Assembly: GCA_947034895.1 (NCBI GenBank)
Contig: OX344761.1
Location: forward strand, 29,586,863-29,650,862
Length of the DNA: 64,000 nt
DNA from: Rhytidiadelphus loreus
Taxonomy: Eukaryota; Streptophyta; Bryopsida; Hypnales; Hylocomiaceae
Direction of reading: 5' to 3'
The notes beneath the pieces were generated by a model. It worked only from the letters and a program-made list of their open reading frames with translations, did not search any database and was not told the origin of the DNA. This document shows, in pieces, positions 15,346-57,994 of the stretch. Numbering within the stretch: position 1 is the stretch's first letter; every line of letters starts with the position of its first letter. Both the position numbers and the translations under genes were made by a program.

Positions 15346-15467
15346 TTAACCCCTAACTGCCTCATCGACCATATATGGTCGATCTGAAATTTCAGGCTCA
15401 TTTTGAAGTGGGCAGTTAAATTCATTTGCCTGTTTTAAAAAAAAAATTGGGCAGTTTTTAGGGTTAA
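15346..15467. mobile_element. Tiny TTAA-flanked element, 122 bp
   Basis: TTAACCCCTAACTGCC at the left and GGCAGTTTTTAGGGTTAA at the right, with an internal palindrome GACCATATATGGTC. It looks like a minimal relative of the larger CCCCTAAAGG elements. A fragment with CCCTAACTGC followed by a palindrome occurs near 38150. Confidence 0.65.
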
Positions 15468-20700: not shown

Positions 20701-20769
20701 ATATTTATTAAGGTAGATGCACTTGGAATCGCCATTGATTATAAGTGAGCATAGTTACTATTATTATTA

Positions 20770-20919
<150 letters not shown>

Positions 20920-30849: not shown

Positions 30850-31971
30850 TTAAGGTAGGTGGCTCAAAAAGCGACACTTTCAAGGGCTGTTAGGACTTTT
30901 TGATGGGTTTCAGAGGCACAAAAATATTTTCCCTTCTTTTTTCACTTGAAGAAGAATTGATGTGGAATCTAACACAAGTGGTTTCATATTTTTCGGAGCA
31001 TTTATGAATTACTTATGAATTTCCAAAGAATTCTGCCATAGGCACCTATTTGTGATCCTAGGCCTTGCAAAACCCACACATGAAAAAATAAATGGCGTGA
31101 CCAAATACAAGCAGTGAAGCATTGAAAAAGTAATACTTAAGGTTCCCGAATGTGACCTTTATTAAACTGAAGCCCTAAACGCCCCAAGGAACCAATATTG
31201 TCTTCACATACTTTCGAGTCCAATTCAAAGTGCTGTAACTTTTGCATCCGATTTCCAAATTCAATAAAACTTGTTGGAAAATTTGGGCTCTCTCTTCTAA
31301 TTTGTGTGATATTATTTTCAAATCAATTCGTATTATACTTATTTTTTGGGGAGCCAATCGAAGTTTACAAGTTCAATTTGAGTTCACCAAACTGCATTTG
31401 CAGGTTGCAGCTTCGGGGGCTTCTATCTCTTTCATTCTAAGTTTGTTTTCAGTAAAATTTGTTGGGTTATGTTCCCCTTGAAGTCTACTTACTGTGGTAA
31501 AATTTTCATGTCACTTCAAATTGTTTTGAATGTTTGGGAGCAATTCAAAGTTCTAAATCCCGACATTCTTTGATCACAATGAACTTTGGCCGCTTATAAC
31601 TTCTTCATACAAGGTCCGTTTTCAATATTTTTGTTGGAAAAGTTGCGCCTACTAGTCTAGTTTGTGTGGATAAAATTTCATATCAATCCAAGAATTAATG
31701 AGTGACTGAGAATCATTTTAGTAAAAGGATGTTCAACCCTAAATGTGTTTTTTGCAAAAATGAGGTGGACACTCCACTCTTAGTTCAAAATCTACCCACC
31801 CTAGCTCTTATTACACCATATGTGAAGTATAAACCAACATCTAACAAACCTTATTAAGCTCTCACATTATCAAAAGTCCTTTTCGGAACCGCTTAGTGTC
31901 CATTTCAGAGCCTCTTGTAGGGATGGTTCCAAGAAGCGGGTCACAATTTGAGCCACCTACCTTAACCCCTA
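30850..31971 (-). mobile_element. 1.1-kb TTAA element of the GGTAG family
   Basis: TTAAGGTAGGTGGCTC at the left and GAGCCACCTACCTTAA at the right are inverted copies. The left third matches the minus-oriented 416-bp elements (CTAACACAAGTGGTTTCATA, CATAGGCACCTATTTGTGA). The remaining part is specific to this copy. Its right TTAA is shared with the start of the next element, so it inserted into that element's target site. No transposase. Confidence 0.75.
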
Positions 31972-32659
31972 AAGGACTAGATTGTTTTTTTTGGTTGTAT
32001 AGAAATTTTGGGCAGGTACCTACGAGCGGAGATTTTCATATTTGGGGCTGAAATTTTAATAGAATGTGGGGGCAAGGAAGATCTTTCATATGCACCAAAT
32101 TTCATGACATTTGGAAATACGAGTCAAAAGTTATAGCCTAATATGTTGCTTTCTTTTTGTAACTGGGCAATTTGGGCAGATTAGAAAAAATCATTTTTTG
32201 CAGAAACAAAAATTTGGAATTGATTTTTTAGAGTTTTATATACACGAAAAGCTTTGAATCATTCCGTTTTGATCAATGAGTCAAAAGTTATGAGGATTTT
32301 TTGTTTGCGGGCAGTTTTGGATTTCCTACTCTAAAATAAACTTTGAAATCCTTTATCTTACCCAATTTTCAATATTTTTGGACAAAAATAAAATCGTAGG
32401 ATGTAAATACATTATTACAACATTTCGACCATTGGGATTGGAAATTTTCAATTCCATATTTAAATTCTAAATAATTTAGTATTTTTATTCATTCTCTACT
32501 ACTACCTACTTACTATTTTTTTCCTATATGTTGTACTATTCCAAATGATCTAAATTTTTTCAAGCATGTGGCCAACTTGTCTAGGAAAAAAAATCCAAAG
32601 AAGCACCACCATTTAGGTCATTTTTTCATAGAAATGTGAGCTTGTGAAGTACAGCTACC

Positions 32660-33669
32660 GGGTAAAAGCACACTACAGTTGTCCGAAATCATAGTCACAA
32701 CAAAATTTCTGCACATGATGAAAGTTTGGTGTCAATTTTCTTATAGTTTCTGTGACTTAAAAAAGAAAAGAAAAGATCAGAGTCTTATATCTTGCATACA
32801 TTGATAATTGCAGAACAAAAAGTGAACTTCATCTATTAATTTAATGTACAGAGTACAAACATTAAGTGTTTGTATTGTGACAAATTCAGCTTGAGCATTG
32901 TTGTACTTCTTTTGCATAGCTTAGGGGTTCGTTTTTACAAATCAAAGAGCTAAATCCAATGCTCTTATGTTTAGGTACTTAGACTGGGCATTTAAGGTAG
33001 CATGCTGTAAAAGCGCTCACCTTCTTCAAACCACTCCTATTTTGGGGTGAAAAATGGAAACCAAGTGATCCTTAAATGGACCACTGTAACAATTGAATGC
33101 ATCAAGAAAAAATTATTTTTCTATTGCAAGAGCCAATCATTGCCTTTGATTTCTGCACATCTGTTTACAAATTGCAAGTGGACAGATTTTGGGAGACCTA
33201 TGGTCACAAATAGGTGCCTATGCCCTGAATCTTTGAAAATTTATAAGTAATTCAAAAATACTTGGAAAAATACAAAACCACTTGTGTTAGTTTCCACATC
33301 CATTTTTCTTTCTCTGAAAAATGATCTAAAAATAATTCTCTCCACTTCAGCCTATGAAAAAGGCAGACCAGCTCTTAAATGGTCGCTTTTAGAGCATACT
33401 ACCTTAATGAGTGTTTTAGGATCTATATAAGAAAATATCCTAGCAAATGTGTGATTTTAGTATGAGGGCCAAATTTTGATTTTAAATTGTTTTTTTTTTA
33501 ATTTTAAATTTGAGAATCTATGAAAAGGCCTTTTGATTTAGATGGGCCAATATTGAATTTTGGTATAAATGGCATTTTGGCTCCATTTAGTACCAATTAG
33601 CATACATTTTGTACTAGTTTTTACTGGATTGTATATTTGGCAGGGGGGCGACCGTAGTGTGCGATCACC
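32660..33669. mobile_element. 1.0-kb inverted-repeat element inserted in the TTAA element
   Basis: Ends GGGTAAAAGCACACTACAGT and (complement) GGTGATCGCACACTACGGTC are imperfect inverted repeats. CTACC stands on both sides (32655-32659, 33670-33674), a likely 5-bp target duplication. The host sequence matches uninterrupted copies at 13823 and 55500 across the junction. It itself carries a 416-bp element. Superfamily unresolved. Confidence 0.65.
32992..33407 (+). mobile_element. 416-bp TTAA element (GGTAGTATGC family), plus orientation
   Basis: TTAAGGTAGCATGCTGTAAA at the left, AGAGCATACTACCTTAA at the right. Its interior is the reverse complement of 33894-34309 with few differences. No coding capacity. 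Confidence 0.85.
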
Positions 33670-33893
33670 CTACCCTGCTTTTTGGAGGGTCAAAAAAATG
33701 ATTTTTGTTAATTTGAATGCTTATATCTTGCAATCCACCCGGTGGAAATGTCTGAAATTTTTACTACATGTTTTTGATACTATATAATACAAGATCCTAC
33801 GGTTAGATATGTTAAAAAAAATTCAAAATTTTGGTACTTGTACTAGAAATGGCAGTTTTGGAGCGTTTTTGGTGAAAGTATAGTGACGGTCCT

Positions 33894-34309
33894 TTAAGGT
33901 AGTATGCTCTAAAAGCGACCATTTAAGAGCTGGTCCGCCTTTTACATAGGCTGAAGTGGACAAAATTATTTTTAGATCATTTTTCAGAGAAAGAGAAATG
34001 GATGTGGAAACTAACACAAGTGGTTTTGTATTTTTCCAAGTATTTTTGAATTACTTATAAATTTTCAAAGATTCAAGGCATAGGCACCTATTTGTGACCA
34101 TAGGTCTCCCAAAATGTGTTCTCTTACAGTTTGTAAACAGATGTGCGGAAATCAAAGGCAGTGATTGGCTCTTGCAATAGAAAAATAATTTTTTCTTGAT
34201 GCATTCAATTGTTACAATGATCCATTTAAGGATCACCTGGTTTCCATTTTTCACCCCAAAATAGGAGTGGTTTGAAGAAGGCGAGCGCTTTTAGAGCATA
34301 CTACCTTAA
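33894..34309 (-). mobile_element. 416-bp TTAA element, minus orientation
   Basis: TTAAGGTAGTATGCTCTAAA to AGAGCATACTACCTTAA, exactly the length of the copy at 32992. It sits inside the right terminal repeat of the CCCCTAAAGG element, at a TTAA created by a G-to-A difference there. Confidence 0.88.
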
Positions 34310-34312
34310 GGG

Positions 34313-34730
34313 TTAAGGTAGAATGCTCTAAAAGCGACCATTTAAGAGCTGGTTTGCCTTTTTCATAGGCTTACGTAAACAAAATTATTTTTAGACCATT
34401 TTTCAGATAAAGAGAAATGGATGTGAAAACCAATACAAGTGGTTTTGTATTTTTCCAAACATTTTTGAATTACTTATAAATTTTCAAAGATTCAGGGCAT
34501 AGGCACCTATTTGTGACCCCATAGGTCTCCCAAAATCCGTCCACTTGCAATTTATAAACAAATGTGTAGAAATCAAAAATAATGATTGACTCTTACAATA
34601 GAAAAATAATTTTTTCCCAATGCATTTAATTGCTACAGTGGTCCATTTAAGGATCACCATGTCTCCATTCTTCACCTCAAAATAGGAACAGTTTGAAGAA
34701 GGCGGGTGCTTTTAGAGCATACTACCTTAA
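34313..34730 (-). mobile_element. 418-bp TTAA element, minus orientation
   Basis: TTAAGGTAGAATGCTCTAAA to AGAGCATACTACCTTAA. It is separated from the previous copy only by GGG and lies in the terminal TTAA of the host element. Very similar to its neighbour, implying fairly recent movement. Confidence 0.88.
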
Positions 34731-40197: not shown

Positions 40198-41059
40198 TTA
40201 ACCCCTAAAGGTCATATACTATGTTTTCACTAAAACTGCCATTTCTAATACAAGCACCAAATTTTAAATGAAAAACATTTTTGGACACATGTAACCGTAG
40301 GATCTTGTAGTAAAATAGTTAGAGAAGATGTGGAACAAATTTCAGAACTTTCCATTGTGTAGATTGCAAGATATTAACATTTGAAGTGACAAAAGTCATT
40401 TTTTTGGCCCCTGCAAAAAATTGGGCAGCTGCTGTTCACAAGGTCACATTTGTATGAAAAAATGTCCAAAATGGTGATTACTCTTTGGATTCATTCCTCA
40501 AATCAAGTTGGTTACATGCTTGAAAATTTTTAGATCATTTGTAATTGCACAACATATACTAGGAGAAAAATAGTAAGTAGATAGAAGTACAAAGTGCTTC
40601 AAAACACTAAATTGTTAAGAATTTAATTATAAAATTGAAAAATTCCAATCCCAACACTGGTAATGTAGTAATAAACAATTTGCATCATTTGTTTTTATTT
40701 TTTCAAAAGATATTATAAGTTAAATAAAGGACTCCAAAGTTTATTTTCGTAAATCAAAATGGAATGATTCAAAGCTTTCCATGTATATATAAATCCAGAA
40801 AATCATTTTATTTTAAAATGATTTTTAGAGAAGTTTTTTGGGCTGCCCAGACTACCCACCGACTGCTAAAAATGACATATCAAGCAATAACTTTTTAACC
40901 ATGTAGTAAAAAATTATGAAAATTATTGTGTCTTTAAGCTCTCCTTGGGCACACATTGTGTGGAATTTTCAAAGAAAAATAAATAAAAATTCCAACTGTA
41001 GTGAGCTGCCTAAAATTGCTATGTTGCCAAAAAAACGGTGTTTGGTCCTTAGGGGTTAA
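40198..41059 (-). mobile_element. CCCCTAAAGG-family TTAA element, 862 bp, minus orientation
   Basis: TTAACCCCTAAAGGTCATAT at the left and GGTCCTTAGGGGTTAA at the right. It contains the reverse complements of the landmarks seen at 54792 and 26079 (for example AGCTGCTGTTCACAAGGTCA and CTCTCCTTGGGCACA). No coding frame. Confidence 0.8.
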
Positions 41060-42504
41060 AAAATTTGTGCATACTTGATTTTGTTGGCTCTGGATTGAAT
41101 GGAAGGAGTAAAAGAGGCTTTGCATTAATAAAAGCTACATGTAAGGTAGACATACCTATTTCTTATTGTTGCACACAATTTCATCTTCATATACCAATGG
41201 AGTACATTTTAGAAGACAAATGTGCATCACTGGTACATGAGGGAGGAATTCTTGAACATAACATTGTTAACTGGGGGGGCTCTTTCCTTGTCATAGAAGG
41301 GATAATCCCCCCTTGATACTTGGGAGGGCATTATGCTGTAATCCTAGGCATCTAATTGGTTTAGTGAGGGTAATTTGAGTTAGCCTTGGTTGTCATCAAT
41401 TGGACAGATCATTCTCTTTTCCTATTCACAACACTTTGTCATTTTTATTATAATATTTCTTTCTCTTCACCTAGTAAGATTATTGGGGGCTCCTGCTTCT
41501 GGGGGGAGCAAAAGGGACTCCCTAGTAAAGATTAGCAATGTTATGAAGGGATGTGAATGCATGTGTCTAGCTTAAGGAAGTTTGAATATAATCTTATTTG
41601 AAATTTGTGCTTGTCTTAACCTTGCAATGCTTCTATAAGAGGACATTTTGTACGAAAAGCCTTTGGGATGGAAAAAAACATTTTTTCATCCAATTTTTGT
41701 TGGAAATTTGCTTAAACTCATTTTCCATAACTAGAGTTAGATTTTCCCTCCCAATGACATTTTTTGACTTTCCTACTAGAGAAATGAAAAATCTTCCAAT
41801 CACTATGTAGTGTATTTTAGCAACTTTTGCCCGTGCTCTTAATTTAAATCTTAGTCATAAAAGTGATGTTTTCTAAATTCAAGACCAACTAGTAAAATCA
41901 AGCTTGTTAAATTTAGTATCTACTAAAATTTGAAATTTCCTAAAATTCAATATTTTAGTGCAATTTGAACTTTGGACTTATAACCATGGAGTGTTGATTT
42001 TCTAATGACAAATCAATTTACTTTGTCATTCTAACACTTTAGACTTCTAAGCACGTTTTGTATTTGATATGATTTTTTAATTTTCAATTTCTATTGAAGA
42101 ATTCACTATAATTTCAAGTTTTCACAATATTGCTTGAAATATTTATGACTTACTAAAAACATGTGTTTACATCTCTAGAAAAGAAATGAAAAAACTTCAT
42201 TTATAAATAGTTGCAAAATCGGAGCATACAAAAAGAAGAACTTTGAAGTTTGAAAATGTGGTCATACGCTTTGTTCTTTTAGGATTAATGTAAGGTGCAA
42301 AGAAATTAGCCATATTAGATACATTTAGGGTACTCATGATGTTTTGGATGAGATCCATTAGTTGAAAGTTTAATCACAAAAACTAAAAAATGTAAATGTC
42401 CTTCACATTTGCAGAAAGTCCAAAGCTAACCCTTTAGCAATTTTATTATATATCATTATATAAGGTGGTGTGTGCTAAAACTGCCACTACTCTAGCAACG
42501 TCCT
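41060..42504. other. A+T-rich intergenic DNA, nothing recognised
   Basis: The short open frames at 41065-41316 and 41598-41810 resemble no family I know and have ordinary A+T-rich composition. Confidence 0.45.
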
Positions 42505-42724
42505 TTAACCCTTAAGCACTCCGATGTCCATATTTTGGACGATGAATAGAGGCTTTGCAAGCGTTGTTTCATCCAACTACCTTCTCATTCATCCAATGTA
42601 ACACTTAAATCTTGAAAAGATAACCTTTTCTTATCCCCAAGTTCATGAAATTTTGGTAAATCATATTACTATAAGCAAAAATATGGCAAAAATTTGAAAA
42701 AGGATTGAGGCGCTAAGGGGTTAA
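42505..42724. mobile_element. 220-bp TTAA element with TTAACCCTTAAGCACTC terminus
   Basis: TTAACCCTTAAGCACTCCGA at the left and GAGGCGCTAAGGGGTTAA at the right are inverted copies (about 14 bp). The terminus closely resembles animal piggyBac-type termini (TTAACCCTTTGC-like), from general knowledge of that superfamily. Non-coding. Confidence 0.68.
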
Positions 42725-42899
42725 TACATTCCATTGGTACGTAGTTGTAGTTCCGATGTGTGTACAGGGAACATTTGAGGGTGGATTACAATTTTGGAGC
42801 ACCCCCAATTCTAAACTTATTAAAAAAAACACAATCAAATCACTGAATCCAAGTGAATTAGGTGCAGCTTCTTCTGGCGTTTTTCAAGGAAATTTTTTC

Positions 42900-44620
42900 T
42901 GAGAAATGATTTGAGCTGTGCAAGCAAACCTCCTGAAAATCCGGGTCGGTGGTGAGAACCTGGACGCTTCATGAACCCCCTCCACCTTAGCCTTAACTCA
43001 TGATGTCATTTCTACCTTTTGATGGGAGAAGAACGTCAGTCAGAGCCAGCTCTCCTTCAGCTCCTTCAAGTTCCCTGACGAGAAGTCGAGTACCGTTTCC
43101 GCTCCTTAATGAAAACCACCCTAACCCACGTGTCATGCTAATCCCCATGTCCCACCGCCCCTCCAGGACGCTCCTAATTCTCCACGCTATCCCAGGCACG
43201 ACATTTAATTAGCAGCAACTGAAATCTGACTCGCGTCAGGAAATCCAGTCTCTTGCAATCTAGATCCACAAGCCAAGCCAAGCCAAAGCCAAGCCAAAGC
43301 AAGGCAAGGCAAGGCAACGCAAGGCAACGCAAGGCTTGGTCCCATGATCCAATGGTCCCCACTCGCCAGTACGGAAGAGCGAGGGAAGCCGCAGATCTAG
43401 CTCCAATGCTGTGTGCCAACTCCCAAGTGTGTGTGACCATAGATGCCAGGCCTACTTGCTGCCCCAATGCAGGCAGTCTGCAGTCGTCCGCACTAATGAT
43501 CCAGTAGATCATGTCTGTCTGTACAAGTGGGTCCTTGCAATTGCAGCAGCAGGGAGCTTATCAAGTTCAGAAGCGCTTCCATCGCCTTGCGAATCGAACA
43601 GCTTCAAATCGACGACTAGCTAAGCTTAGACTGTTCAGAGCAGTGCAGTGGAGTGTTACCGATAGATAGATAGATAGAATTGAAGTGGGTCCCGGTTCTT
43701 CCTTCCTTGCGCGGCAACCCTACTTGTGGGGTTCAGACTTTGCGAGTCAAGCTAGTCATGAATGATGTCTCTTGCTTGCTTGTTGAAATTGCAGGTGCAC
43801 CGCTTATCACGCTTATCACGGCCAAGCATGTGGCCCAGCTTTCGATGTGGGTGGGCAAGACTTGCATGCAAGCAGGATCATATCGGAGAATAGATTCGAT
43901 CGCCACCGCAGGAGACTTCAACTTGCGGCAGAAAGCTTGCAGGTACTCACGTACTAGCTTTGTGGATTCTTTGCATGCCCTAGCTTTGTCCCCTTGGTGC
44001 TCATCTCGCCTGCAAACCTCACTTCAGTGGGCTTTAATTGTTGTTAGAGGCTCTAATGGCGATCGGCGTTGCCACTGCATCCCTAGTTAGTTGGTTGGTT
44101 AGTTAGTTAATCAAGGCTAGGCCAAAATTACTATTAGCTAGATCGAACTTCTCTGCAACAAGGTTGATGTGAGAGGTTCCGTCGCCGGCCAAGGAACAGT
44201 AATCAAGCTTGGTGTGGTTAGTCACTTACCACTCGTATATATATGTCCAGATGTAACTTTTTATGATCGCGTGGTAAGATAGAAATCTGCGAGTGTAGTA
44301 TGCTGTCGGTCTATGTAGTTTGGCGCCAGGATCAATGAAGATATGATTGCTTACCGTTAAAATGGCTTTTGGTTAATGAGACATCACGAACCTCTGTTGA
44401 AAAGGAAATTTAGGGCTCTATCAACCGGGTTTTGTGCTGCAAGAGGAATCCAGCATTCGAACGGCTAGTTAAGTTGTTCAGAATTTGAAGTAACTTAGAG
44501 TGTGTGTGCATAGCTCCCAATTCTACCCTATAACCACTGTTTGTGTCTCTACCCGAGATCGTGAACTCTGCACAGCTGCTCGTGGTCATTTCTCCAGCCT
44601 TTGCGAAATTAGACATTTAA
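42900..44620. other. GC-richer tract, possible unrecognised transcript
   Basis: Composition rises between two A+T-rich regions. It holds a CAAGCCAAAG/CAAGGCAACG simple repeat (43264-43336), GATA microsatellite (43661-43678) and acceptor-like TTGAAATTGCAG|GT (43784-43797) and GCTTGCAG|GT (43936-43944). Open frames of about 110-136 codons exist, but the longest (43680-44090) starts at TTG rather than ATG and resembles nothing known. It may be a non-coding or multi-exon gene. Confidence 0.35.
43264..43336. repeat. Degenerate AAGCC/AAGGC simple repeat
   Basis: Successive CAAGCCAAGCCAAAGC, then CAAGGCAAGGCAACGCAAGG, a purine-rich 5-6-bp periodic tract. Confidence 0.85.
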
Positions 44621-45570
44621 GAAGGTAGTGTGCAGCAAGCTGAATATGTCCATGTAGATCTATTTAAGTCTCAACTAATTTTCCAATAAGCCAACTAAGT
44701 CTCTTAATTAAAACTGTTCCTGCATAGGTGAACATTAATTTTATTTCTGGAAGGTAGGCTCAACACTTGTAGATTGGAACGTACCGTGTAAGAAAAGCGG
44801 TCAGTTAAAGGACCCCTTCTCAGTGAATTGAATGTTTTACATCAATGAGCTTAGAAGCTGAGAGAAATTGAATGACAATTCAGACATATTAAGGCTAGCT
44901 AGTGTCCGCTTCAATTCAGATCGCCTTACGCATGCCGAATGGCATCATGAAGGAAACAGAGTGCCACAAGCTAGTACGATCGATGAGATAATCAACTCTT
45001 CTTTCAAGGAATAGCTGAGATATCATTGAGTTCTTCGATAATTCGGAGGTAGTCGACCATGTGCGTATCGCGTGCTGAACGATCGACTGAGGAGTGAGTG
45101 AGGAGAGCTGTTCTCTGAAATTCAGGTCAAAATTCTGCATTCCGAAGAAAGATGAGCAAACTAGCAAGTAATTTCAATGTGACATATATTCCAGTCAATC
45201 ATGTCTGTACTGGGCTATCACAAGAGACGGATCCCTCTAAGTGGCGCACTAGCGTTGGACCTTGTAGAAAATGCTTGAACGTATTATTCGTCAACAATGG
45301 TTAAACAATACTTGGAAAAATTTGAATTCATCAAGAGACCCCAAACAAATTAGCTAGAAATACAAAATTAATCATTGAAGGAAAGGAGACAGATTTTGTC
45401 CCTTTATTCCCATGTGGATGGTAATTAAGAAATTCTCTTCTCCTAGGCACTTATAGCACTAGTTTAGAGTACTCCCAAAGAAATATCCAATAGTTTTGTT
45501 GCATATGGGGTAGTATTAAGAGTGTAGGAGTACTATGACTATATGACGTTTTAGTATTTATCCTAAACAT
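44621..45570. other. Intergenic DNA of intermediate composition, nothing recognised
   Basis: No protein family or element end seen. Confidence 0.4.
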
Positions 45571-45725
45571 GGAATTTTTTGTTAAAATGGCATATGAAAT
45601 GCACCATTATTCTATTCCTTTTTTAGCCCTAAAGTTTAGGACAAGTATAGATTTTAGACTGCATGGTTTGAACTATAAAGCGTCAAGTTTATTTTGTGGA
45701 ATACCACCATTTTAATGAAATATTG
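45571..45725. mobile_element. Diverged relative of the AATTTCATTAAAATGG elements
   Basis: GGAATTTTTTGTTAAAATGG at the left and CCATTTTAATGAAATATT at the right, with the shared internal phrase AGTATAGATTTTAGACTGCA. About 155 bp. Confidence 0.5.
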
Positions 45726-47984
45726 GTTAAACCTATAAAAACAAGGTACTGAAAATAAGTAGAATGCTACAAATAATATTTTTTTCAAAAAATAGATATA
45801 AGAAAATTTCAAGAAAATACATTTTTTGATGTTTTCATTTTTAGAAAATTACAAAAGCATTTATTAAAAAAAACTCATCATATTTAGCAATTTGAAGGAA
45901 CTTCTAGTCAACCGGTTTTATCTTAAGAAAAAGAAAACCATGATTCTTGCATTGATACAATGGAAGTGTACTTTGAGCACTTTTGGAAGATGAAAATTTA
46001 GAAGTCAGAGTTCTTTGTACTCATAGATGACCTCAAATCTTTTTTTTCAGATCCAGATTTGTTTTTAGGAACACAATAATACTAGAACTCCCTGAAAATG
46101 ACAAAAATGGCAAAAATGATTTTCAACCAAAGCTGCTTTTTGAAAACTATGAAAATAACTAAGTAAGTTGCAAATAGCCTACTTGGTGCGGGGTGGGCAT
46201 CTCACCTTTCATTTTGCATAGGATTGAATAGAATGTCATCAAACTATCAGGTTCTAAACAGGTACTAGATTTAAGAGATGATGAGTGATGCAATAAACAA
46301 TTGCTCCGACGCACTGATAGACTTAAAAGAAGCGGACTTTCCATTATATATGTAGGTGGCAATTAATTGTGAAAGATTTTCCAAGCAATCTGAAGTTGAC
46401 AAACTAAACTAAACCTCGACCGAATAGCAAATCGTCATGCAGTCATGTCGCGCCGATGCAATTGTATCATGCGTCCGAATTCCAAGTCTTTGAAAGTGTT
46501 GCATATACAAGAAATACTGGTATCAATTCAAAGCAGGAAGGAGGTCTTGCTAACTTGACACGCATCTGTGCAGTGACGTCAATCTAAGCACATTGCTGTG
46601 GAGATTTAATGAAGCTCTAGTATAGCTAGCTGACTGTTGTTTGTGTTTGATCGACAGTCTCCTTCACTTCCGCAGCTGAGTTACCCATTATTCAATGCAT
46701 CGATCTCCCGCTTAGAGCAACGAACTGCCAGCACCCTCTGCACAGCTTTGTCCGCTTGCGCAGTGTCGAACGTCCATTTAGCTCTTGCTACATTAATTCC
46801 CAGAGTGGTTAATTGGCTGTTTAGTTGGCTTTGTCGCCTGCTGCTGCAGGTACACTTCTATTCAGTGTTACTTCTGAAATAGTGTTACTCCGACAAACCT
46901 GGGGTCACACTAAATAGAGCTTTTATCATCCATTACTGTAGACTGTACTTCATGGTGTCCTATACATTGCAAACACCATAAATGGCAAAGACCATACTAT
47001 ATTGGTAATTGTAACACTATTCTTAATAAAAAGAAAAGCTCTATCACTAAATAGTGTGGATTCTTTTTAAATCATGGGACACTTAACCAAATGATCTCAA
47101 ATACTATAATGATATATATATAGAGAGAGGACCACACTAAATAGTATGAAGAGTGTAGCTATCGGCGGTGGAAGTGCCCTATTTGGTCGATTCCCACTTC
47201 TCACCAGCCACACTGATATAGTGGCCCGCTGGTTGGTCTTCTAGCTCGCCAGCATCTCCGATCCTGCTACCTCATGGGCATTCTCTTTCCAGCAGCATTC
47301 TGTGGAAACATACTTGAGGTCGGATAATAGGTTGCAATATGTTCATCTTTTTAATTGAACACAAGCTAAGATCGTTCAGTTCCATTATACTCCGAGGCGA
47401 ATACTCTGGATATTAATCGATACTTTTCCAGTCGAGCATTTGGAAACGTTCCAGTTCTAGTTCTAGCTAGTTTCTTGAGCCTTGTTCAGTTCAATGTCAC
47501 AATTTCGACGCTCTGAATCGCGTCAGTATTAACAATATTGACGTTTATTTGAGTAAAACTATGCATGGGATTGCTAGCATTACTAAAAAACTAAATCGCA
47601 ACATTCGTCTTGTATGAATCCTGGGGCCTGCAAACTTGGTGATCCACCTTTATAATCCTGGGGCCTGCAAACTTGGAATATGGATGCTAGGGTCACGAAA
47701 AATAAGGATTGAAATGGAGGCGTTTGATCTTTCAAGACTTTAGAGATCACATTAGGCTTACTAACAGTGCCTCCCCGCCCCTTTTGCTGACCCACAATCT
47801 TGGTCTCCTCGACATTGTCAAACGGAATTGAATATGAGGGAAAACGCTATATACCTCCAGCATGGGGACAATTGGCAGTCAAGAGCGCAGTCTTTGTCGA
47901 GTGCCACTTGTCACCGTCTGAATTAAGACTCTAGCGAGTGGGACCGGGGATCGGTTGTCGAACATTTAGCTTATGGTGGATACA
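45726..47984. other. Mixed intergenic DNA, no recognised gene
   Basis: 46400-47984 is GC-richer than the surrounding desert. A branch/acceptor-like CTGCTGCTGCAG|GTACAC is at 46840-46856. A near-repeat ATCCTGGGGCCTGCAAACTTGG occurs twice, about 38 bp apart (47617, 47656). No coding frame resembles a known family. Confidence 0.35.
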
Positions 47985-48177
47985 GCGTGCGACATGTGGA
48001 TGTAAGCAGGAGGAAACTTCGGAAGTTGAGTGAAAATCTCTTCCCCACTAAGCTTACTGTAGCTCGGACTGCATTTCTAACGTGCCGTACCCAGTGTGAA
48101 AATTTGAAGCAGGCCTGTAAGCTGGGTGTTTACTTATCTAGCGCAAATTCTAGATATCAATACTTCCAGTGATTGAA
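47985..48177. repeat. Segmental duplication, copy 1 (empty site)
   Basis: CATGTGGATGTAAGCAGGAG... through CAATACTTCCAGTGATTGAA is repeated at 48213-48511 with scattered substitutions. This copy lacks the 117-bp insertion carried by copy 2. Confidence 0.88.
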
Positions 48178-48212
48178 AGTGTTCCCACTGGCAACCTCTA
48201 GCTCTCCGAATG

Positions 48213-48511
48213 TGGATGTAAGCGAATGGAAACTTCGGAAGTTGAGTGAAAATCTCTTCCCACTACAGTACTGTAGCTTGGACTGCATTTCTATCGTGCC
48301 GTTCCCAGTGTGAAAATTTGAAGCCTGTAATAATAAGTTAGATAGGCAATTTCGTTAAAATGGCGGTATTCCAGTATAATGGCACTGCATTTGTTAGAAA
48401 ATAACACTACATTCCGGTAAAATGGCAAAAAACTGCCGCCATTTTAAAGAAATTGCCTATTTAGGTGCTTACTTATCTAGCGCAAATTCTAGAAATCAAT
48501 ACTTTTAGTGA
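48213..48511. repeat. Segmental duplication, copy 2 (filled site)
   Basis: Same sequence as 47985-48177 but longer, because a 117-bp inverted-repeat element interrupts it. The shared flanks are AAGCCTGTAA to the left and TTACTTATCTAGCGCAAATT to the right. Confidence 0.88.
48343..48459. mobile_element. 117-bp element with TAGGCAATTTC ends
   Basis: TAGGCAATTTCGTTAAAATG... and ...CATTTTAAAGAAATTGCCTA are near-perfect inverted repeats of about 25 bp. It is present in only one of two duplicated flanks, showing insertion after the duplication. Related to 39341 and 45571. Confidence 0.82.
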
Positions 48512-49563
48512 TTGAAAGTGCCTCTTGCGACTGGCAACCTTTCTCATCAAGAAGCAAATTACTCAATTCCGTAGAGCTTATCGAAACATTCTTTAGCAGT
48601 TGTGAAAATTCACTGACCTAAGAGTAGGCACTCCAGTCCACTGTAACTGTAGTAAGCTGCTGATTCTCTCTTACGCAAAGAGCATGCAGGTTGAGCAATC
48701 AGTGGGCAGCCAACACTTGTCTTCTTGTTGTACCTTTGCCGGCACCTCACCCTCACTCCCAGACACCTGAAATGAGGATCTGGATTTTTCTTTTCAAAAG
48801 GTGTATGATAGATAGAGTCAGTCGTAGACTGAGGCAATTATTCAAATTCAATTCTGTCTGTTATGATTTTTCCTTGTGGAGTCTGGAATTTATCAAAGGT
48901 TTAAAAAATATATAGATATAGATAGATAGATATATAACACTCCTGGTGAAAATGATTGAGATTCTGAACAGCAGCAGGGAGTCTATTTAAGCTTAACCCT
49001 TGGCAAGGACGGGGCTATGACCACTGAATTCAAGCCTCGCTGTACTGTACTTTCATCATTCTGTTTTGAAACTAAGGTAGAAATGAATGAAAAAATTTAT
49101 ATTTATTTTTCAGAGATGAAATCATAGGTCTACTACAAGTCATACAATTTTCAAATTCTGGGGGGAAATTTGAAATCATTGTGAGTTTCTTAAGGGAAAA
49201 AAATTGAGGAAAATTCATATGAAATGCAAAATATACTCAAAAAATCTGAAATGTTTACCATAGATGTATATTTTATAACATCATGGTATGAACCAAAGTT
49301 ATTGTGTCACTCTAAAATTAGAAAACATAAAAAACCCATCAATGGAGGCCCAAAGTTATTATTGTTGATTTGCTATAAAATATTGAAATTTATGATTTTT
49401 TTTCAAAATTTCCAATTAGTGTAGAAACTACACTTGATAAGCTTCATTTTATTAATGGGACTCAATTTCAAAAAACGCCATTTTAATGGCTAAAATTCAC
49501 ATCAAGAGTAAATAGCAAGAAATGGCCCAAGTACGCTATGAACGAGGGTGATCTGTGGATTAA
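48512..49563. other. Intergenic DNA, nothing recognised
   Basis: Begins GC-richer and becomes A+T-rich. A TATAGATA microsatellite is at about 48907-48938. No gene seen. Confidence 0.4.
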
Positions 49564-50155
49564 TTAACCCCTAAAGGACTGAGGCACATGTTAGCTAGAA
49601 ATTGTAAAAAAACTGCCACTTTTTTAGGGCAGTGAAAAAAAGATGAAGAAAAAAGTGTTTTTTTTCAAAATTCAACCGTACAAATTTGTAATAGCCTACT
49701 GTCGGAATGTGTGGAAAAAATTTCAGAAACTTTGACCGCATGGATTGAGAGATTATAAAGTTTGAAGTTGAAAGAAAAAAGTTCATTTTTGCCCATGCCC
49801 GACAGGGCCAGCACACTTTTAAGTCCTCCTAGGATGATATTTTTACACTACACATGGTTTTTTTTTGGACATTTGCATCTTGTATCATGCAAGTTACATA
49901 ATTGCCAAATTTCAAAAGTAGAAGAGGAGTTTTGCACATGCTACACGAAGCTGCCGAAGCTGCCAGAAAAGTTCAAGGCAACATAACTTTTGATTTGGGC
50001 ACCCAATCAGAAAAAAAATTATATTTCCACAAAGTAGGTACATGTTCACACATTGTGTCAAAATTTGAAGAACATTCATTAAAAAATGACTTCATACACA
50101 CCTACCTGAGATCACTTGCGTTCAACGAACGGTCATTCGATCATTTAGGGGTTAA
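49564..50155 (+). mobile_element. TTAA element, GGACTGAGGCACAT subfamily, 592 bp
   Basis: TTAACCCCTAAAGGACTGAG at the left and GATCATTTAGGGGTTAA at the right. Counterparts at 27134 and 61388. No transposase frame. Confidence 0.8.
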
Positions 50156-50724
50156 GCATCTTCTTCTTTAAAAAAAGTCAACAATACCACAATGAGAGGA
50201 TTTGCAATACTATTGACTGAAAATCTCCCAAGCAACTTCAAAAATAGAATGGATGAAAAATTAAACATTGAAGTCATCACAAAGTCCATTTTGCATCCTC
50301 AGCAGCATTTCAGGGTTAATTGAAAATGGTGGATTCATCCATCCTAAATGATCTCCTCCAGATGAGATTCACATCATGTGTGTAACCACAATTCAATTTC
50401 ATCACTGTGATCAATTGAATTCGTCGTTTTGCAACACAATTAAGCAGGAACTGAGGTAATGAAAATAAATGGAACAAAATTGTCCAAAATTTGTCCAAAG
50501 CCATTTGGCTCAAAATTGTCCAAAGCCATGCTGCTTTTTGGTAGAAATGAAAAAAAAACTCACATTAGTTTAGATAGCAGGATGTTAAAGTGGTCATTTG
50601 AAGTCTGCGTCTTGCGTCTGTCTTCCCCCAGTCAAGGGCAAATGTAAAAAAATTAATTATTTTTATTTTGTCGTTGCTAAGTGTCCTGTGTTCTTCACCT
50701 CTCCTACTATGTTCTTTGCCCCTC
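50156..50724. other. Intergenic DNA between two TTAA elements
   Basis: No gene or further element recognised. CAAAATTGTCCAAA is repeated three times near 50473-50525. Confidence 0.4.
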
Positions 50725-51629
50725 CTAACCCCTAAAGGACTGTGACAGTATGTTTTAGTCACTCCAAAACTGCCCATTTCTAGTACAAGTACCAAATTTT
50801 AGAAAAAAAAACATTTTTGGACACATGGGATCTTAAAGTATGTTGACTTCAGAACACGTGGAAAAAATTTCAAAACTTTCCACCTCGTGGATTGCAAGAT
50901 TTGAGCTTTTGAATTCATAGAAATCCTTTTTTTGTCCTTGCAAAAAATCGTGCAACTGGACTTTACAAGCTCACATTTGTATGAAAAAATGTCCAAAATG
51001 GTGGTGCTTCTTTGGATTCATTCTCCAAAGCGAGTTGGCTACATGCATGAAAAATTTCACATCATATAGGAAAAAAATAGGAACTAGAAAGAAGTAGAGA
51101 ATGATTCGAAATACAAAATTGTTAAGAAGTTAGTTATGGAATTGCAAAATGCCATTGCAATGTTGTAATAAACAATCTACATCCTATGATTTTGTTTTTT
51201 TCAAAAAATATTGAAAATGGAGTAAGATAAAGGACTTCAAAGTTTATTTTAGGGTAGAGATTCCACAATTGCCCACAAACCAAAACTCCTCATAACTTTT
51301 GACTCATTGATGAAAATGGAATGATTCAAAGCTTTCCACGTATATATAACTCTAGAAAACCAATTTCAAATCTTTATTTCTGAAAAAAGTGATTTTTATT
51401 ATCTACCTGGATTGCCTATTTATGAAAAAAGAAACATATTAGGCCATAACTTTTTACTCGTATTTCCAAATGTCCTGAAATTTAGTGCATATGAAAGATA
51501 TTCCTTATCCCCACCTTCTATTAAATTCTACTACAATTTTAGCATAAAATATGCAAATCTCTATTCATACATATTTGCCCAAAATTTCTATATTGCCAAA
51601 AAAATGCATGTTGGTCCTTTAGGGGTTAA
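50725..51629 (-). mobile_element. CCCCTAAAGG-family TTAA element, 905 bp, minus orientation
   Basis: CTAACCCCTAAAGGACTG at the left (target TTAA altered to CTAA) and TTGGTCCTTTAGGGGTTAA at the right. Carries the reverse complement of the whole-length landmarks of 54792-55740. Confidence 0.8.
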
Positions 51630-53519
51630 CTAATTTGAAGACTTTGATTCTAAATTCTAAATTTTATCATGGGTGGAAAATAAAAAATTCCAATATTTTT
51701 CCACGAGTAAAAATACAGATTTTGAATGACTACTTTAACATCTTGCCATTACATAATGTTCCTTGTAAACTTGTAATAATTACCCCCGTTAGGGATTGTA
51801 GGGCTATTTTATAGATCATATTTGACTCCTAGAATATCAAGTATGTATTCAAATATGGCAAGACATGGGGCAAAAACACAAGACACTTGTACTATAAGTC
51901 AGTTGTTGTATTTTGAGGGTTCAACTCAAATTTGATTTTAATATTAAACATGAAATTGATGTTCTTTGAATTTGAGTCCAACTAACTAAGTGAAACTTAC
52001 TAATTCTAATTTTTACCCCAATTTGAAATTTTTATTGTCATTTAAATAGTGGACCAATAACCATGGTCTTAAGTTTTTAAATATAGAATGACATGGAATA
52101 TTGACTTGGTCCATGATGTTATACACTATGACATATACCTATGATTCAATTTTCAATTTTTTTGAGTTCAATTCATATTAGATATGTAATTTCTTCACTT
52201 TTTTGTCAAAAATTCACGACAATTTCAAATTTTCACAAAAAATCTGAAATTTTTATGACTTGTAGAGGTAATGTGATTCCATCTCTAGAAAATAAATATG
52301 AAACATTGCATGCAAATTTAGTCACAAAATAAACTATACAAAGAGGAGGGCTTTAAAGTTTGACAAAGTAGTCATAGGCTCTAGTCTTTGAAGGGTTAAA
52401 TTGAAATGTTCCTTAATTATATATCATAAGAAGGGATATACAAACTTGTTATGGGATTTGGGACAAAAGAACAGCTCTATTGTGCATATTGCAACTACAA
52501 TTGTGCTTCCCAAACTCAAGATGTGCACTTAGTTCTACTATAACAAACCATGTGCAAACAAGTGGTTTCTAATAAACTATAATTTCAACTTAAAATTTTG
52601 AGCATTTTTTAATAATGACTATAGATTTCTATTGCCGAAATCTCCAACTCAAATAAAATATGAAATGATTTCTAGAAGAGGTTGAAAATTAACTAAAATG
52701 ACATGTTTTTCAACTCAAATAATTATAGAGAACACATTTAGATGACCATTGAATCAATATTCAACTCAAAATGAGCTTTCAATAGAGAATTATTTTTAGG
52801 AATTTTTTGTTCATTTTTTAGACAAATTTTTCTTATATAATATAGAGGTGTGAAAGTTATTTTTCAGTTCTACAATGTATCTTTTTACTTCAAAAATTTG
52901 TAACTAATTATTATTAACAAATAAAAATAAAAATAATTCAAAATATAAACTTTCAAAGTAGGAAAATCTATTCATATTTTGTTTTATTTTGTTTAATTTT
53001 AAATTCAAAAAGTATATAGGGGTCCAAAGTTTTGTTCGCACGTGGTTTCTAATGGACACTTTAAGTGCCCCCCCATTTCATGATCATTGAATGATGCATC
53101 TTGAAGATCATAATGTTTTTACAAAACATGATTATTGTAAATGTGGAAAATGAGATTCTTAGAGGTGCTCTAATTCAATGAGCAATAGGTATAAGGGAAT
53201 TTTTTCAAAAGTAAAGGTGAGCTACTTTTAAAATATATGCACTTGACAATGCAAAAATGATCAATTATACTTGTGTTTAATTGTCTAACTTATAGAATCT
53301 TTAATGTTTTTTTAGAGTTCATCGTTGCTTAGAATATATATAATACACAACAATGGATAACATAGAGAACATCCACTTACAAAGACTTTAGGGTTAAAAA
53401 CTTATTAAGATCGAGGTATGAGAAATTGATTATCTGTAATAACATTGTGGACATATTCCTTGAACAATCAGTACATTATTTGGCTTTGAAATACCACATT
53501 GTTAGTATTGAAAGTTGTA
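51630..53519. other. A+T-rich intergenic DNA, nothing recognised
   Basis: Stops in all frames and no definable element. Confidence 0.5.
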
Positions 53520-53572
53520 TACTCCCTTTGTCTCAAAATAATACCGATGTTTATTTTGAGACAAAGGGAGTA
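53520..53572. mobile_element. Minimal Stowaway-like hairpin, 53 bp
   Basis: Perfect 20-bp arms CTCCCTTTGTCTCAAAATAA (53522-53541) and its complement (53551-53570) around a 9-base loop, flanked by TA on each side. The arm matches the well-known plant Stowaway (Tc1/mariner MITE) terminus. Almost all of the usual internal sequence is missing. Confidence 0.8.
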
Positions 53573-53795
53573 CTTATTAAAGTCTAGATATCAGTTGTGT
53601 CTTCCTTTTGTAATGTCACCTCTTGCAATGAAACCCATTCATGTGTTTTCTCTTTACCTTCTTCATCCCTTGGCATTTGACCAAAACCAATTTCTTTCTA
53701 ATTTATTTTATACACATTTATTTTACACTGCTTGTCACTTCTTTTTCATTACAATGTCAGTACACAATAACCCCCTCTGTACAATCATGTATTTT

Positions 53796-53881
53796 TTTTT
53801 TCTTTGAAACAAGTGAAATGAAACTTCATTGCAGAACAACAGATAAGTTACAAAGCCGCCAGGCCAAAGACTGGTCAAGAA
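53796..53881 (-). mobile_element. 86-bp 5'-truncated retroposon with 15-bp target duplication
   Basis: A poly(T) tract then CTTTGAAACAAGTGAAATG... lies between two identical copies of ACAATCATGTATTTT (53781-53795, 53882-53896). Read on the minus strand it ends ...CATTTCACTTGTTTCAAAG followed by A's, the layout of a LINE or SINE 3' end. Confidence 0.85.
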
Positions 53882-53896
53882 ACAATCATGTATTTT

Positions 53897-54791
53897 GATA
53901 GTTTGTAAATCCAAATGATGATCCAATTATGAAGAATTATATTTATATATGCACATCTGAACTTCATACTTTACCACCCATTTTCCAATGATTTTCCAAG
54001 CCCCTGGAGACCAGAAAAGTGTCCACCTGGACACTCAAAATACCCGCCAGAATCCAAAAGGGAAGGGGCTGCACTGCATTGACCTCAGCCTGGAATTCCT
54101 GTCCTTTACCTCAGTACTCCGGGTCTAAAGCAGCCTTAATGTTGAATCAGCCGTTTTAAAGTGTTTTTTGGGCATGGAAAAAGTATGAATTTTCAATGAG
54201 AAAAGAAGCAATAATGAAGTCAACATATGCGGTCACCAGAGACTGAATTGGGTTTCATTTTTAAGTTATCTTAGCACTGGCGAAGATAGTTCTGCAAACC
54301 CTAATTGGTTGTGCTGTGATGACGGCCATTTTTCCCATATTGTGGCAACAGCATTCAGTTGAGTATCATCAGGATGCCATGGGTCCTAATTTACATGCCA
54401 AATGGATGTGCCTTGGTGCCAGTGAAGCCCACCAATGACAAGGAGGTAACTCTGCCTAAGGTGGAAGCACCCAAAACCATCAATATAAGCAATTCAGCAT
54501 AGTTGGAGATACTTTTTCCTAAAAATTATATTTTTGGAGTATTAGTAAGTGAAAATCATGAATATTCAAAAAATAAATTAGATTATCGGATGAGGTATGT
54601 AATTTCTATGATTTTTCAAAGTGTTGGCTCCCTAAGACCACTGGAACTGTCACACAGGTGGACCCTAAACCAGAATTTGCAAAAATGAGTAGTTAACAAA
54701 TTAGAGTTAAGTATGTGTCCTTCAAATGCGTCAACAAATCAGAGGTAAGCATTTGAATTGAAGGACTTATTAACTAAAGTCTAGGGACATA
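53897..54791. other. Intergenic DNA, nothing recognised
   Basis: A slightly GC-richer patch at 53990-54480 has no recognisable protein. Confidence 0.4.
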
Positions 54792-55740
54792 TTAACCCCT
54801 AAACGTCCAAACAATGTTTTTTTGGCAACATAGCGATTTTGGGCAACTCACTACAGACGGAAGTTTTTTTTCTTTGAAAATTTTACACAATATGGGGATG
54901 AGGAGTAGCTTTAAGGCCCAACGATTTTCATAACTTTTGACTACATGGTTCAAAAGTTATTGCATGATATGTAATTTTCAGTGTTTTGCGGGTAGCCTGG
55001 GTAGCCCAGACAGAAGCAAAAAATTCTTTGAAAATCACTTTTGAAAAAAATAAAAATTTGAAATTGATTCTCTAAATTTTTATATATGTGTTAAGCTTCG
55101 AATCATTCCATTTTGATTAATGAGATGAAAGTTATGAGGAATTTTAGTTTGAGTTAGTTTGTGGGTAGTTATGGAATCTCTACTTTAAAATAAACTTTGA
55201 AGTCCTCTATTTAACTCAATTTTAAATAGTTTTGGAAAACAATAAAAAAAAAAAATAGGTGTATATTGTTTATAACAACATTACAACCATTGGAATTGGC
55301 ATTTTTCAATTCTATAAATAAATTGTTAACAATTTAATATTTTTAATCATTCTCTACTTCTTTCTACTTACTATTTTTTTCCTATATGTTGTACAATTCC
55401 AAATGATCTAAATTTTTCAAGTATATAGCCAACTTGACTTGAGGAATGAATCCAAAGAGTAACCACCATTTTGGACATTTTTTCATACAAATATGACCTT
55501 GTGAAGTGCAGCTGCTTGTATTTTCACAGGGCCTAAAAAAGGATTTTTGTCACTTCAAACGTTAATATCTTGCAATCTACACGGTGGAAAATTCTGAAAT
55601 TTTTCCACACCTTCTCTAACTATTTTATTTCAAGATTCTACGGTTACATTTGTCCAAAAATGTTTTTCATCTAAAATTTGGTGCTTGTAAATGCAAGGGT
55701 AGTTTTGGTGAAAAGATAGTCTTTGACATTTAGGGGTTAA
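54792..55740 (+). mobile_element. CCCCTAAAGG-family TTAA element, 949 bp
   Basis: TTAACCCCTAAACGTCCAAA at the left and TTTGACATTTAGGGGTTAA at the right. It is the best-preserved plus-oriented copy and a good reference for the family. Inner landmarks include GGCAACATAGCGATTTTGGG, TGACCTTGTGAAGTGCAGCT and CTTGCAATCTACACGGTGGA. No protein. Confidence 0.82.
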
Positions 55741-56340: not shown

Positions 56341-57994
56341 TATAAGAATGAAGTTGGAGCAAGTGACAAGTGGCAGTGGAACTTGATAGAAAGTCTATAC
56401 TGAAATGCCTATAAAGTGGGTGGGTTTGCTCCAAATCGCACCTTGCTTAAAATTGCCATCATCACTTTGTGTACATCTCCCAAAGCAATATGTATGTATG
56501 TCAAAGAAATGATTTTAGAACATCTACCAAAAAACCTTAGACCGGTACAAGGCTTCATAACTTTTGTATATAGGACCCAATGTCGCATTCTTTGGTGCAT
56601 TGGAACATCTAATTTGACTTCAAGTATGAAAATTTGATTAGTTTAATAATAGAAACTATGCAAAATAGCAAAAAGTCATGGTGGTTTTGGAGGTACTCAC
56701 CTTATTTGGACTTTCAAAAATAGAATGAATTGTACATGCTTAAAAACTTTGGCAAAATTTAAATCTTTGTTTTTGAGAACTTCCATATAGGCAAAGGAGT
56801 GTCAAAATTGAATTTTCACATCATCCTAAATCAATTACAAGATGACATTTGACACTTTAGTTAACTTCTAATGGTTTAAAACTATGTTTCACCAAAAAAA
56901 AAACCTCCAAAGTACCCCTTCTAGTACAATGACCAAAAATGACCAAAAAAACTAGTTCTTCATAATTACCTTAGGATCTTACTTTAAATGTGTATGAGAA
57001 TGTATTGGAAAAAAATTCAAGAGCTTTGACCAAGTAGATACTTGTGTTCAGAGTAAATAAAATAAAATTTTGTAGCTTCTTTTCCAGTTTTTTAGACTAT
57101 AAATCCTCTTAATTTAAAAAGTTTGTACTATATAATTTTTAGACTTAAATCTTTATGGTAGAAAATTGAATTGGGAATCTAGGAAGAAATTAAAGAAAAG
57201 ATAAAAGTTGATTTTCATTCTTTAATCTTGTAAGAACACTAAAGACCTAAAAGGTTCACGGTGGATGACTTCACTAAGTTAACTATAGAAATAAAGAATG
57301 CATCTATTGGTTGAATAATCAAAGTATCACAGTGAATACCTTTGTCATGGGAAGCTACATCCTCCCAAGGTTAAAAAATTGTTAAGAAGAAGTAGAAATA
57401 AGATGGATGACAAATTATATCATTAATAGTTCTAAAATGGAAATGATACATGTCAATCCTAAGGGTGAGATTGTTGTAGAAAATAGTCTACACCCTATGG
57501 AACTTTTAGTTTGGAAAGAATGTGAAAATTGAGCTAAAAAACGAATCCTACATGTTATTTTTTCATGAAGATGTATTGATTGCTTTCAAAACAAGACTAT
57601 TCATAATTTTCACATCAATAATACAAAGCTTCCCATGTAGACATAAATAAACTCAATAAAAAGAAGACTTGTTTTTAAGAAAATTGGATTTTTGCAAGGG
57701 GGTTTATTACCTACGGTCAAGCATTTGGTGCTTCTGAGGGCATAACTTTTTGTCTTGGACACCAATTGAAATAGAAATTGTATTCCCAAAGAACTAATAT
57801 ATTCCCTTACCTCCAAAAAAAAGTTTCAAAAATTGTAATAGAAATTGACATTACATAAACTTGTCCTTGAAAATCCTTAGAAACCCATTTCTAAGACTTA
57901 AAACCTTTAGGAATTAATTTATGTGGAGTTTGACCCTCACATAGGATAGTTTGATATTTGCTTAGAAGTTGGAGAGGCATTTGAGCAATCATGC
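56341..57994. other. A+T-rich DNA with eroded repeat interior
   Basis: 56860-57200 resembles the interiors at 7080 and 28120 but has no recognisable ends. No gene. Confidence 0.4.

What the first reader, a model, noticed from the sequence alone, without database searches (positions are those of the whole stretch)
40198..55740. A family of TTAA-flanked elements ending in CCCCTAAAGG, with piggyBac-like termini, in a plant sequence
At least five complete or near-complete copies have mirrored ends (26079-26968, 31968-34316 once insertions are removed, 40198-41059, 50725-51629, 54792-55740), and decayed copies lie at 5107 and 13129. A subfamily with GGACTGAGGCACAT near its left end is at 49564, 27134 and 61388. 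All follow the plan TTAA-CCCCTAAAGG ... CCTTTAGGGG-TTAA. TTAA targets and CCC...GGG termini are the hallmarks of piggyBac (known from general family knowledge); Kolobok and Sola3 also use TTAA. I do not regard piggyBac as normal in land-plant genomes, so either this lineage carries it or a different TTAA-targeting transposase is active. The density is high: these elements make up more than a tenth of the window.
Basis: partly seen in the sequence, partly recalled or inferred. Interest (0 to 1): 0.88.

Follow-up and report, generated by a model that had tools for sequence, protein, structure and literature searches.

The report
piggyBac transposon relics in a moss
This stretch of moss chromosome is littered with short, non-coding relatives of piggyBac, a jumping-gene family best known from animals, and the same moss genome also holds near-identical full-length versions carrying the enzyme, so this kind of mobile DNA appears to have thrived in a land plant.

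Summary
Such families cover 16.4% of the window. In the 407-Mb genome the exact 14-mer TTAACCCCTAAAGG occurs 3,905 + 3,957 times; the reversed control 0 + 2. The host is a moss.

The piggyBac reading is supported. The genome gives 116 piggyBac (PF13843) matches above cut-off, the 116 scored of 767 candidates. Four coding elements were seen with both ends; three end in TTAACCCCTAAA, the fourth in TTAACCCT. One family, whose 626-aa protein has 12 copies (11 at 100%, one at 98%), shares its left 143 bp with window copy e. Empty sites hold one 4-bp target, TTAA in 8 of 10 in the best case.

These are non-autonomous piggyBac elements with recently amplified coding relatives in the same genome: a known kind, in an unusual host and at large scale. 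Transposition was not observed. Eight literature searches showed no account of piggyBac in a moss, though reviews do list it for plants.

The parts
40198..41059 (-). Family-1 non-autonomous piggyBac element c, 862 bp with both TTAA
   Evidence: ends 10/10 and 8/10 to CCCCTAAAGG, TTAA both sides; reverse orientation relative to copy e
54792..55740 (+). Family-1 element e, 949 bp with both TTAA; left 139 bp homologous to the left end of a coding piggyBac element
   Evidence: 39 other scored genome copies are 87-91% identical
50725..51629 (-). Family-1 element d, 905 bp; left flank CTAA, right TTAA
   Evidence: both ends 10/10
26079..26968 (+). Family-1 element a, 890 bp
   Evidence: TTAA both sides, ends 9/10 and 8/10
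31962..34316 (+). Family-1 element b, interrupted by an insert at about 32660-33678 and by a GGTAG element at 33894-34309
5107..5635 (+). Family-1 left part, truncated (i)
13129..14069 (+). Family-1 decayed copy (j), TTAA lost on both sides
   Evidence: 76-79% to copies a, c and e
49564..50155 (+). Family-2 element f, 592 bp; paralogous empty sites found, with an extra TTAA in the filled site
   Evidence: ends 10/10 and 9/10; empty sites in L063, L007 and L009
61388..62294 (+). Family-2 element h, 907 bp
   Evidence: TTAA both sides, ends 8/10 and 9/10
27134..27661 (+). Family-2 element g, right end not found
15346..16137 (.).
   Evidence: ends CCCCTAACTG and CCCCTAAGTG, TTAA both sides
56861..57917 (.). 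Further TTAA element, 1057 bp, related to the 932-bp family
   Evidence: ends 7/10 and 8/10, TTAA both sides; homology in 56898-57225 and 57371-57876
7103..7962 (.). Copy of the 932-bp family, ends not defined
28098..28822 (.). Copy of the 932-bp family, ends not defined

Best explanation
The elements are non-autonomous piggyBac transposons (MITE-like, about 0.6-1 kb) of a moss. They were copied around by a cut-and-paste DDD transposase of the piggyBac superfamily, made in trans by 4.9-7.8-kb coding elements in the same genome that have the same type of termini. The transposase would recognise the CCCCTAAAGG-type ends plus subterminal sequence and insert the element into TTAA, which is duplicated. 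Shown: ends, TTAA flanks, empty sites with one 4-bp target, coding elements with matching ends, near-identical coding copies. Inferred: mobilisation in trans, and activity in the recent past.
For: (1) PF13843 in the genome: 767 first-look candidates, 116 scored, all 116 above cut-off, best 1.9e-80; 0 of 14 control genomes. L040 frame: PF13843 5.6e-79; solved piggyBac transposase 6x67, E 4.9e-31, the three aspartate motifs aligned (that they are catalytic is recalled). (2) Termini: two 7.6-7.8-kb copies (C1:28702495-28710317, C4:22264180-22271811) in different flanks lose homology exactly at TTAACCCCTAAACG... and ...CATTTAGGGGTTAA. Element C3:20616811-20621662 (4,852 bp, 530-aa frame) ends TTAACCCCTAAAGTCCC on both sides. 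(3) The left 143 bp of the first family match window copy e (72%, 5e-17); with the shared terminal 14 bp removed, 6 of 7 window copies beat all 500 block shuffles and b is reached by 1. (4) Empty sites: transposase element C1:6613689-6620912 lies in the TTAA of an e-like copy; 8 of 10 spanning copies have one TTAA there, 4 of the 8 in the window. Four nested short elements: 7, 32, 21 and 22 distinct spanning copies, with TTAA in 6, 2, 8 and 9; 81 of the 82 keep a 4-bp site. (5) 12 full-length copies of the 626-aa protein, 11 at 100% and one at 98%, 10 without stops.
Against: The window elements encode no transposase. Right ends were compared with the 626-aa family for four copies only, and they resemble it weakly or not at all: beyond the terminal 14 bp, the numbers of 300 shuffles reaching the observed score are 0 (e), 257 (a), 0 (c) and 4 (d); copies a, d and h gave no match to the L038 or C3 element at E 1e-3. 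The fourth coding element with both ends, C1:6613689-6620912, ends in CCCTTAAGCG/CCCTAGAGCG, not CCCCTAAA. Many empty copies have four bases other than TTAA at the site, and gaps lie within about 18 bp in 18 of the 82. Window copy f has an extra TTAA compared with its three empty sites; L010 against window 52735-53075 is gapped and not counted. Expression and transposition were not tested.
Confidence: 0.95

Rival explanations
1. Another TTAA-targeting superfamily (Kolobok or Sola3) made these elements, and the piggyBac copies in the genome are unrelated to them.
For: A second TTAA family with unlike ends (GGTAG...) exists in the window, so more than one TTAA system may be present. No search for these transposases was made.
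Against: Coding piggyBac elements share termini and up to about 540 bp of subterminal sequence with CCCCTAAAGG elements, and 143 bp with window copy e.
Confidence: 0.03
2. PIF/Harbinger (Tourist-like) MITEs with a 3-bp TTA/TAA duplication, misread as TTAA.
For: This is a common plant MITE kind. Empty sites alone cannot tell a 4-bp TTAA from a 3-bp TTA with one more base in the element, because the inserted length is the same.
Against: TTAA at 13 of 14 window flanks; symmetric ends only if TTAA is outside; coding relatives are piggyBac.
Confidence: 0.01
3. Old relics only: piggyBac died out long ago in this moss and nothing moves now.
For: Window copies a, c, d, e and j are 70-84% identical to each other, and e is at most 91% identical to the 39 other genome copies scored.
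Against: 12 copies of the 626-aa protein at 98-100% identity on contigs C1, C2, C4 and C5; two copies in different flanks 96-98% identical in DNA; 932-bp elements up to 96% identical. This argues for recent movement of some families, not of the window family.
Confidence: 0.2

Closest known systems
piggyBac superfamily (DDE_Tnp_1_7, PF13843), structure 6x67
   Same: transposase domain over nearly its full length with the three aspartate motifs, TTAA target, CCC...GGG termini, Cys-rich tail seen in the frames
   Different: named animal relatives are at 27-32% identity; the 30 sampled proteins fall in several deep clades apart from the animal-containing side
piggyBac-derived MITEs of animals, e.g. 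mPok1/mPok2 of Daphnia (abstract starts in the listing)
   Same: short, non-autonomous, belonging to a TTAA-type piggyBac family
   Different: host is a moss; thousands of ends in the genome
piggyBac MITEs said to occur in angiosperms (PMC10004981, one passage)
   Same: same superfamily in plants
   Different: the passage gives no elements to compare; coding partners were found here
Tourist/PIF-Harbinger MITEs of plants
   Same: size, AT-rich, high copy number (general knowledge)
   Different: 3-bp target duplication and another transposase

Membership tests
piggyBac superfamily | Transposase with PF13843 domain in elements with the same ends | tested here: met
piggyBac superfamily | Three catalytic aspartates | tested here: met
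   motifs aligned to 6x67 for L040. Rough motif scan of 30 loci: third motif 30 of 30, second 21 of 30, first 21 of 30, one of these (L035) doubtful; misses not examined
piggyBac superfamily | TTAA target duplicated on insertion, one TTAA in empty sites | tested here: met
   best case 8 of 10 empty copies with TTAA; window f not clean
piggyBac superfamily | Termini beginning CCC | tested here: met
   CCCCT, CCCTT/CCCTA. PMC10813416 names CACTA, CCCTC, CCCTT and CCCAT in animal elements (passage); CCCCT is not among these four
piggyBac superfamily | Zinc-binding Cys-rich C-terminal domain | tested here: inconclusive
   Cys/His-rich tail visible in both frames, but no second Pfam family for L040 up to E = 1
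piggyBac superfamily | Seamless excision restoring TTAA | not testable with these tools
   needs an excision assay or pedigrees
Kolobok / Sola3 | Their own transposase | not tested
   no search made for either
PIF/Harbinger (Tourist) | 3-bp TTA/TAA target duplication | tested here: inconclusive
   TTAA at 13 of 14 flanks speaks against it, but empty sites cannot exclude it by length
PIF/Harbinger (Tourist) | Harbinger transposase in a coding partner | tested here: not met
   the coding partners found are piggyBac; Harbinger transposases themselves were not searched

The most novel reading that the evidence does not exclude
Mosses, or some of them, host their own old and diverse radiation of piggyBac with several deep lineages in one genome, at least one of them recently active. 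Its non-autonomous offspring number in the thousands, and some may join a left end of one piggyBac lineage to a right end of another (window family 1: left end like the 626-aa element, right end of copies c and e like the L038 element), which would point to cross-mobilisation between lineages.
Probability: 0.5. Interest if true: 0.7.

Novelty: new member of a known kind. Interest (0 to 1): 0.6.

Why it matters
piggyBac is widely used as a genetic tool and is best known from animals (general knowledge). For plants, the passages that I saw are lists: a review counts PiggyBac among plant DNA transposons (PMC10794571), another says PiggyBac MITEs are known in angiosperms (PMC10004981), a third says piggyBac has been isolated from plants (PMC10813416), and a fern table gives 1,230 copies, 0.00% of the genome (PMC6890710). 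A moss with recently amplified, largely stop-free piggyBac genes and thousands of short-element ends offers a natural system to ask how such elements entered plants and spread there, and whether their enzymes could serve as plant-native insertion tools.

Tried and rejected
Literature search on the terminal sequence listed 20 of 154 papers, none on transposons by title. Searches for piggyBac with moss/bryophyte/Viridiplantae terms and for TTAA or land-plant piggyBac listed no account of piggyBac in a moss; I saw listings and passages only, and not every paper counted was listed. The Niphotrichum paper holds the word only as 'piggybacking'. Coding genes in the window: 10 of the 19 frames of at least 110 aa were scanned; one has a PPC domain, the others nothing above cut-off, one weak match at E 0.26. 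No Rfam match at gathering scores and no tRNA. The 5,121-bp pair on C1 (L009) was tried as a coding element and holds no frame over 120 aa; its right 1.2 kb matches shorter elements. In one search locus L038 was joined in the wrong orientation; one search repeats it correctly and only one search is used. Of 38 end pairs tested for empty sites, 9 had spanning matches; 3 were dropped as tandem or adjacent elements (two in L061, one in L016) and L010 as gapped. Counts held overlapping loci (L008/L026); one search gives the distinct ones. The tree has long branches and unnamed environmental rows; it is used only to say that the 30 sampled moss sequences fall in several deep clades. Ages in years were not computed.
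Full report
OBSERVATION. I scanned the window for the 14-mer TTAACCCCTAAAGG on both strands. At 13 or more matching bases there are 12 sites, against 0.05 expected from 20 first-order Markov sequences; at 12 or more, 20 against 1.15; at 10 or more, 85 against 64. With 49564-50155 and 61388-62294 there are seven copies with both ends; 13 of their 14 flanks read TTAA and one reads CTAA. Dropped from that count: 13129-14069, which has lost TTAA on both sides, and 5107 and 27134, whose right ends were not found. Copies a, c, d, e and j are related over much of their length at 70-84% identity (alignment). An element library covers 10,509 of 64,000 bases; the reversed library gives no hit.

HOST. 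The only clear gene found in the window, an AT-hook protein with a PPC domain (675-1691, minus strand; PF03479 8.5e-25), is closest among named records to Physcomitrium patens (81% identity over 97%). The next named one is from Morella rubra, a flowering plant (66% over 44%), and then come Sphagnum, Physcomitrium and Ceratodon; unnamed records reach 90% (120 of 4,578 hits listed). The window lies in a 407-Mb assembly of 489 contigs, C1:29586863-29650862. I take the host to be a moss; the species was not determined.

GENOME SCALE. The exact 14-mer occurs 3,905 times forward and 3,957 times reverse; the reversed control occurs 0 and 2 times. Only the first 100 of these places were listed. Among neighbours under 8 kb apart, 21 pairs face each other, 14 of them spanning 912-955 bp and the rest 78-5,121 bp; 8 pairs face outward and 8 point the same way. 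Thirteen elements of 912-955 bp were compared: 69-96% identical to each other, none aligned to window copies a, c, d or e at E 1e-20, though shorter stretches align at a laxer setting. The search with window copy e had 6,830 first-look candidates; 40 were scored, itself and 39 others at 87-91% identity, most of them full length.

THE TRANSPOSASE. The piggyBac model PF13843 gave 767 candidates; 116 were scored and all 116 are above the cut-off, best E 1.9e-80, many in open frames of 500 to over 1,100 codons, others with stops; none of 14 control genomes rings. In the 30 loci cut out, a rough motif scan finds the third aspartate motif in 30, the second in 21 and the first in 21, one of them doubtful. 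The 530-aa frame of L040 matches the solved piggyBac transposase 6x67 at 4.9e-31, with the three motifs aligned.

LINK BETWEEN SHORT ELEMENTS AND TRANSPOSASE. Of the 30 loci, 14 show TTAACC facing outward in their 1.5-kb flanks; most of these were not followed to a proven end. L030 and L050 (97% identical) share a boundary exactly at TTAACCCCTCAAYGCCCC; their other end was not reached. Four coding elements were seen with both ends. (i) C3:20616811-20621662, 4,852 bp with both TTAA, has TTAACCCCTAAAGTCCC at both ends and shares its first 99 bp (83%) and last 298 bp (74%) with a 932-bp element. (ii, iii) The family of the 626-aa frame, at C1:28702495-28710317 and C4:22264180-22271811: homology starts and stops at TTAACCCCTAAACGCCC and CATTTAGGGGTTAA, with TTAA outside and unrelated flanks. 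(iv) C1:6613689-6620912 has other ends, CCCTTAAGCG and CCCTAGAGCG. The left 143 bp of (ii) match window copies e (72%, 5e-17) and c (70%, 2e-8), and shorter parts match a, d, i and j; b shows no left-end match in that search. Without the terminal 14 bp, six of seven window copies score above all 500 block shuffles, and b is reached by one. Right ends, tested for four copies, match this element weakly or not at all (300 shuffles: reached by 0 for e, 257 for a, 0 for c, 4 for d). Copies c, e, f and g share 52-187 bp (69-83%) with the end of a related coding locus, L038, one end of which was seen; a, d and h do not at E 1e-3. The window family may combine ends of two piggyBac lineages, or the right ends have simply diverged.

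EMPTY SITES. Element (iv) lies inside an e-like copy, at a TTAA that is single in window copy e and doubled around the insertion. Of 10 spanning uninterrupted copies, 8 have TTAA, one TAAA and one TTCA. Element (i) lies inside a 932-type element; 33 distinct spanning places have a 4-bp site, TTAA in one, the closest (95%), and other letters in 32. Nested short elements, distinct empty copies: L005 806-1391, 7, 6 with TTAA; L025, 32, 2 with TTAA; L027, 21, 8 with TTAA; L028 (78 bp), 22, 9 with TTAA. Window copy f: 3 related empty sites, two with TTAA, but the filled site has an extra TTAA, so the case is not clean. L010 against the window was gapped and is not counted. Empty sites alone cannot separate a TTAA duplication from a 3-bp one with one more base in the element; the symmetric ends and the transposase decide for TTAA.

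RECENT AMPLIFICATION. The 626-aa protein is present in 12 full-length copies, 11 listed at 100% and one at 98%, 10 without stops, on C1, C2, C4 and C5; 70 of 1,119 candidates were scored. The two fetched copies are 96-98% identical in DNA. This suggests recent movement of that family; window copy e is at most 91% identical to the 39 other copies scored.

RELATIVES. In the protein collection, the L040 frame has 140 hits at E below 0.001 (120 listed) and the L054 frame 103 (all listed). Among those listed, every record named with an organism is an animal (shark, bee, mussel, oysters, fly, flea), at 27-32% identity; the closest (82% for L040, 74% for L054) are unnamed environmental or assembly records; no plant is named. 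Gene annotation usually masks transposons, so this is weak evidence of absence. In a tree of 30 moss and 32 other rows, the moss sequences fall in several deep clades mixed with unnamed rows and separate from the animal-containing side at 100/100; the root is a midpoint and some branches are long.

VERDICT. These are non-autonomous piggyBac elements in a moss, with coding relatives in the same genome. The kind is known; the host, the number of lineages and the copy number are unusual. In eight searches of the held library I saw no account of piggyBac in a moss, while passages in three reviews list piggyBac for plants or angiosperms. For the papers opened, only matching passages were seen.

Noticed in passing
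32992-33407, 33894-34309, 34313-34730: A second TTAA-flanked family with 20-bp ends GGTAGTATGCTCTAAAAGCG, about 0.42 kb, copies 88-95% identical; decayed ends near 30850, 57995 and 58142. A 24-base end pattern occurs 110 + 110 times in the genome, reversed control 0 + 0. One copy sits at a TTAA within the end of element b. Its transposase is unknown.
   Followed up: partly
L028 501-578; L061 1884-2000: Very short units (78 bp, and 60-bp tandem units) bounded by CCCCTAAAG-type ends on both sides; the 78-bp one has 22 distinct empty copies, 9 with TTAA.
   Followed up: partly
49564: Copy f is preceded by an extra TTAA compared with its empty sites, possibly a footprint of an earlier event.
   Followed up: no
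12906-13126 and 14097-14329: Inverted repeat of about 220 bp (76%) on both sides of the decayed copy j; j may sit in the middle of a fold-back element.
   Followed up: no
32660-33678: Insert in element b with ends GGGTAAAAGCACACTAC / GTAGTGTGCGATCACCCTACCC, kind not determined.
   Followed up: no
window, element ends: The termini contain CCCTAAA, the plant telomere repeat unit (recalled); probably coincidence.
   Followed up: no
675-1691: Gene for an AT-hook (PPC domain) protein, the marker that pointed to a moss host.
   Followed up: yes
20755-20918: TTA microsatellite, 53 copies.
   Followed up: no
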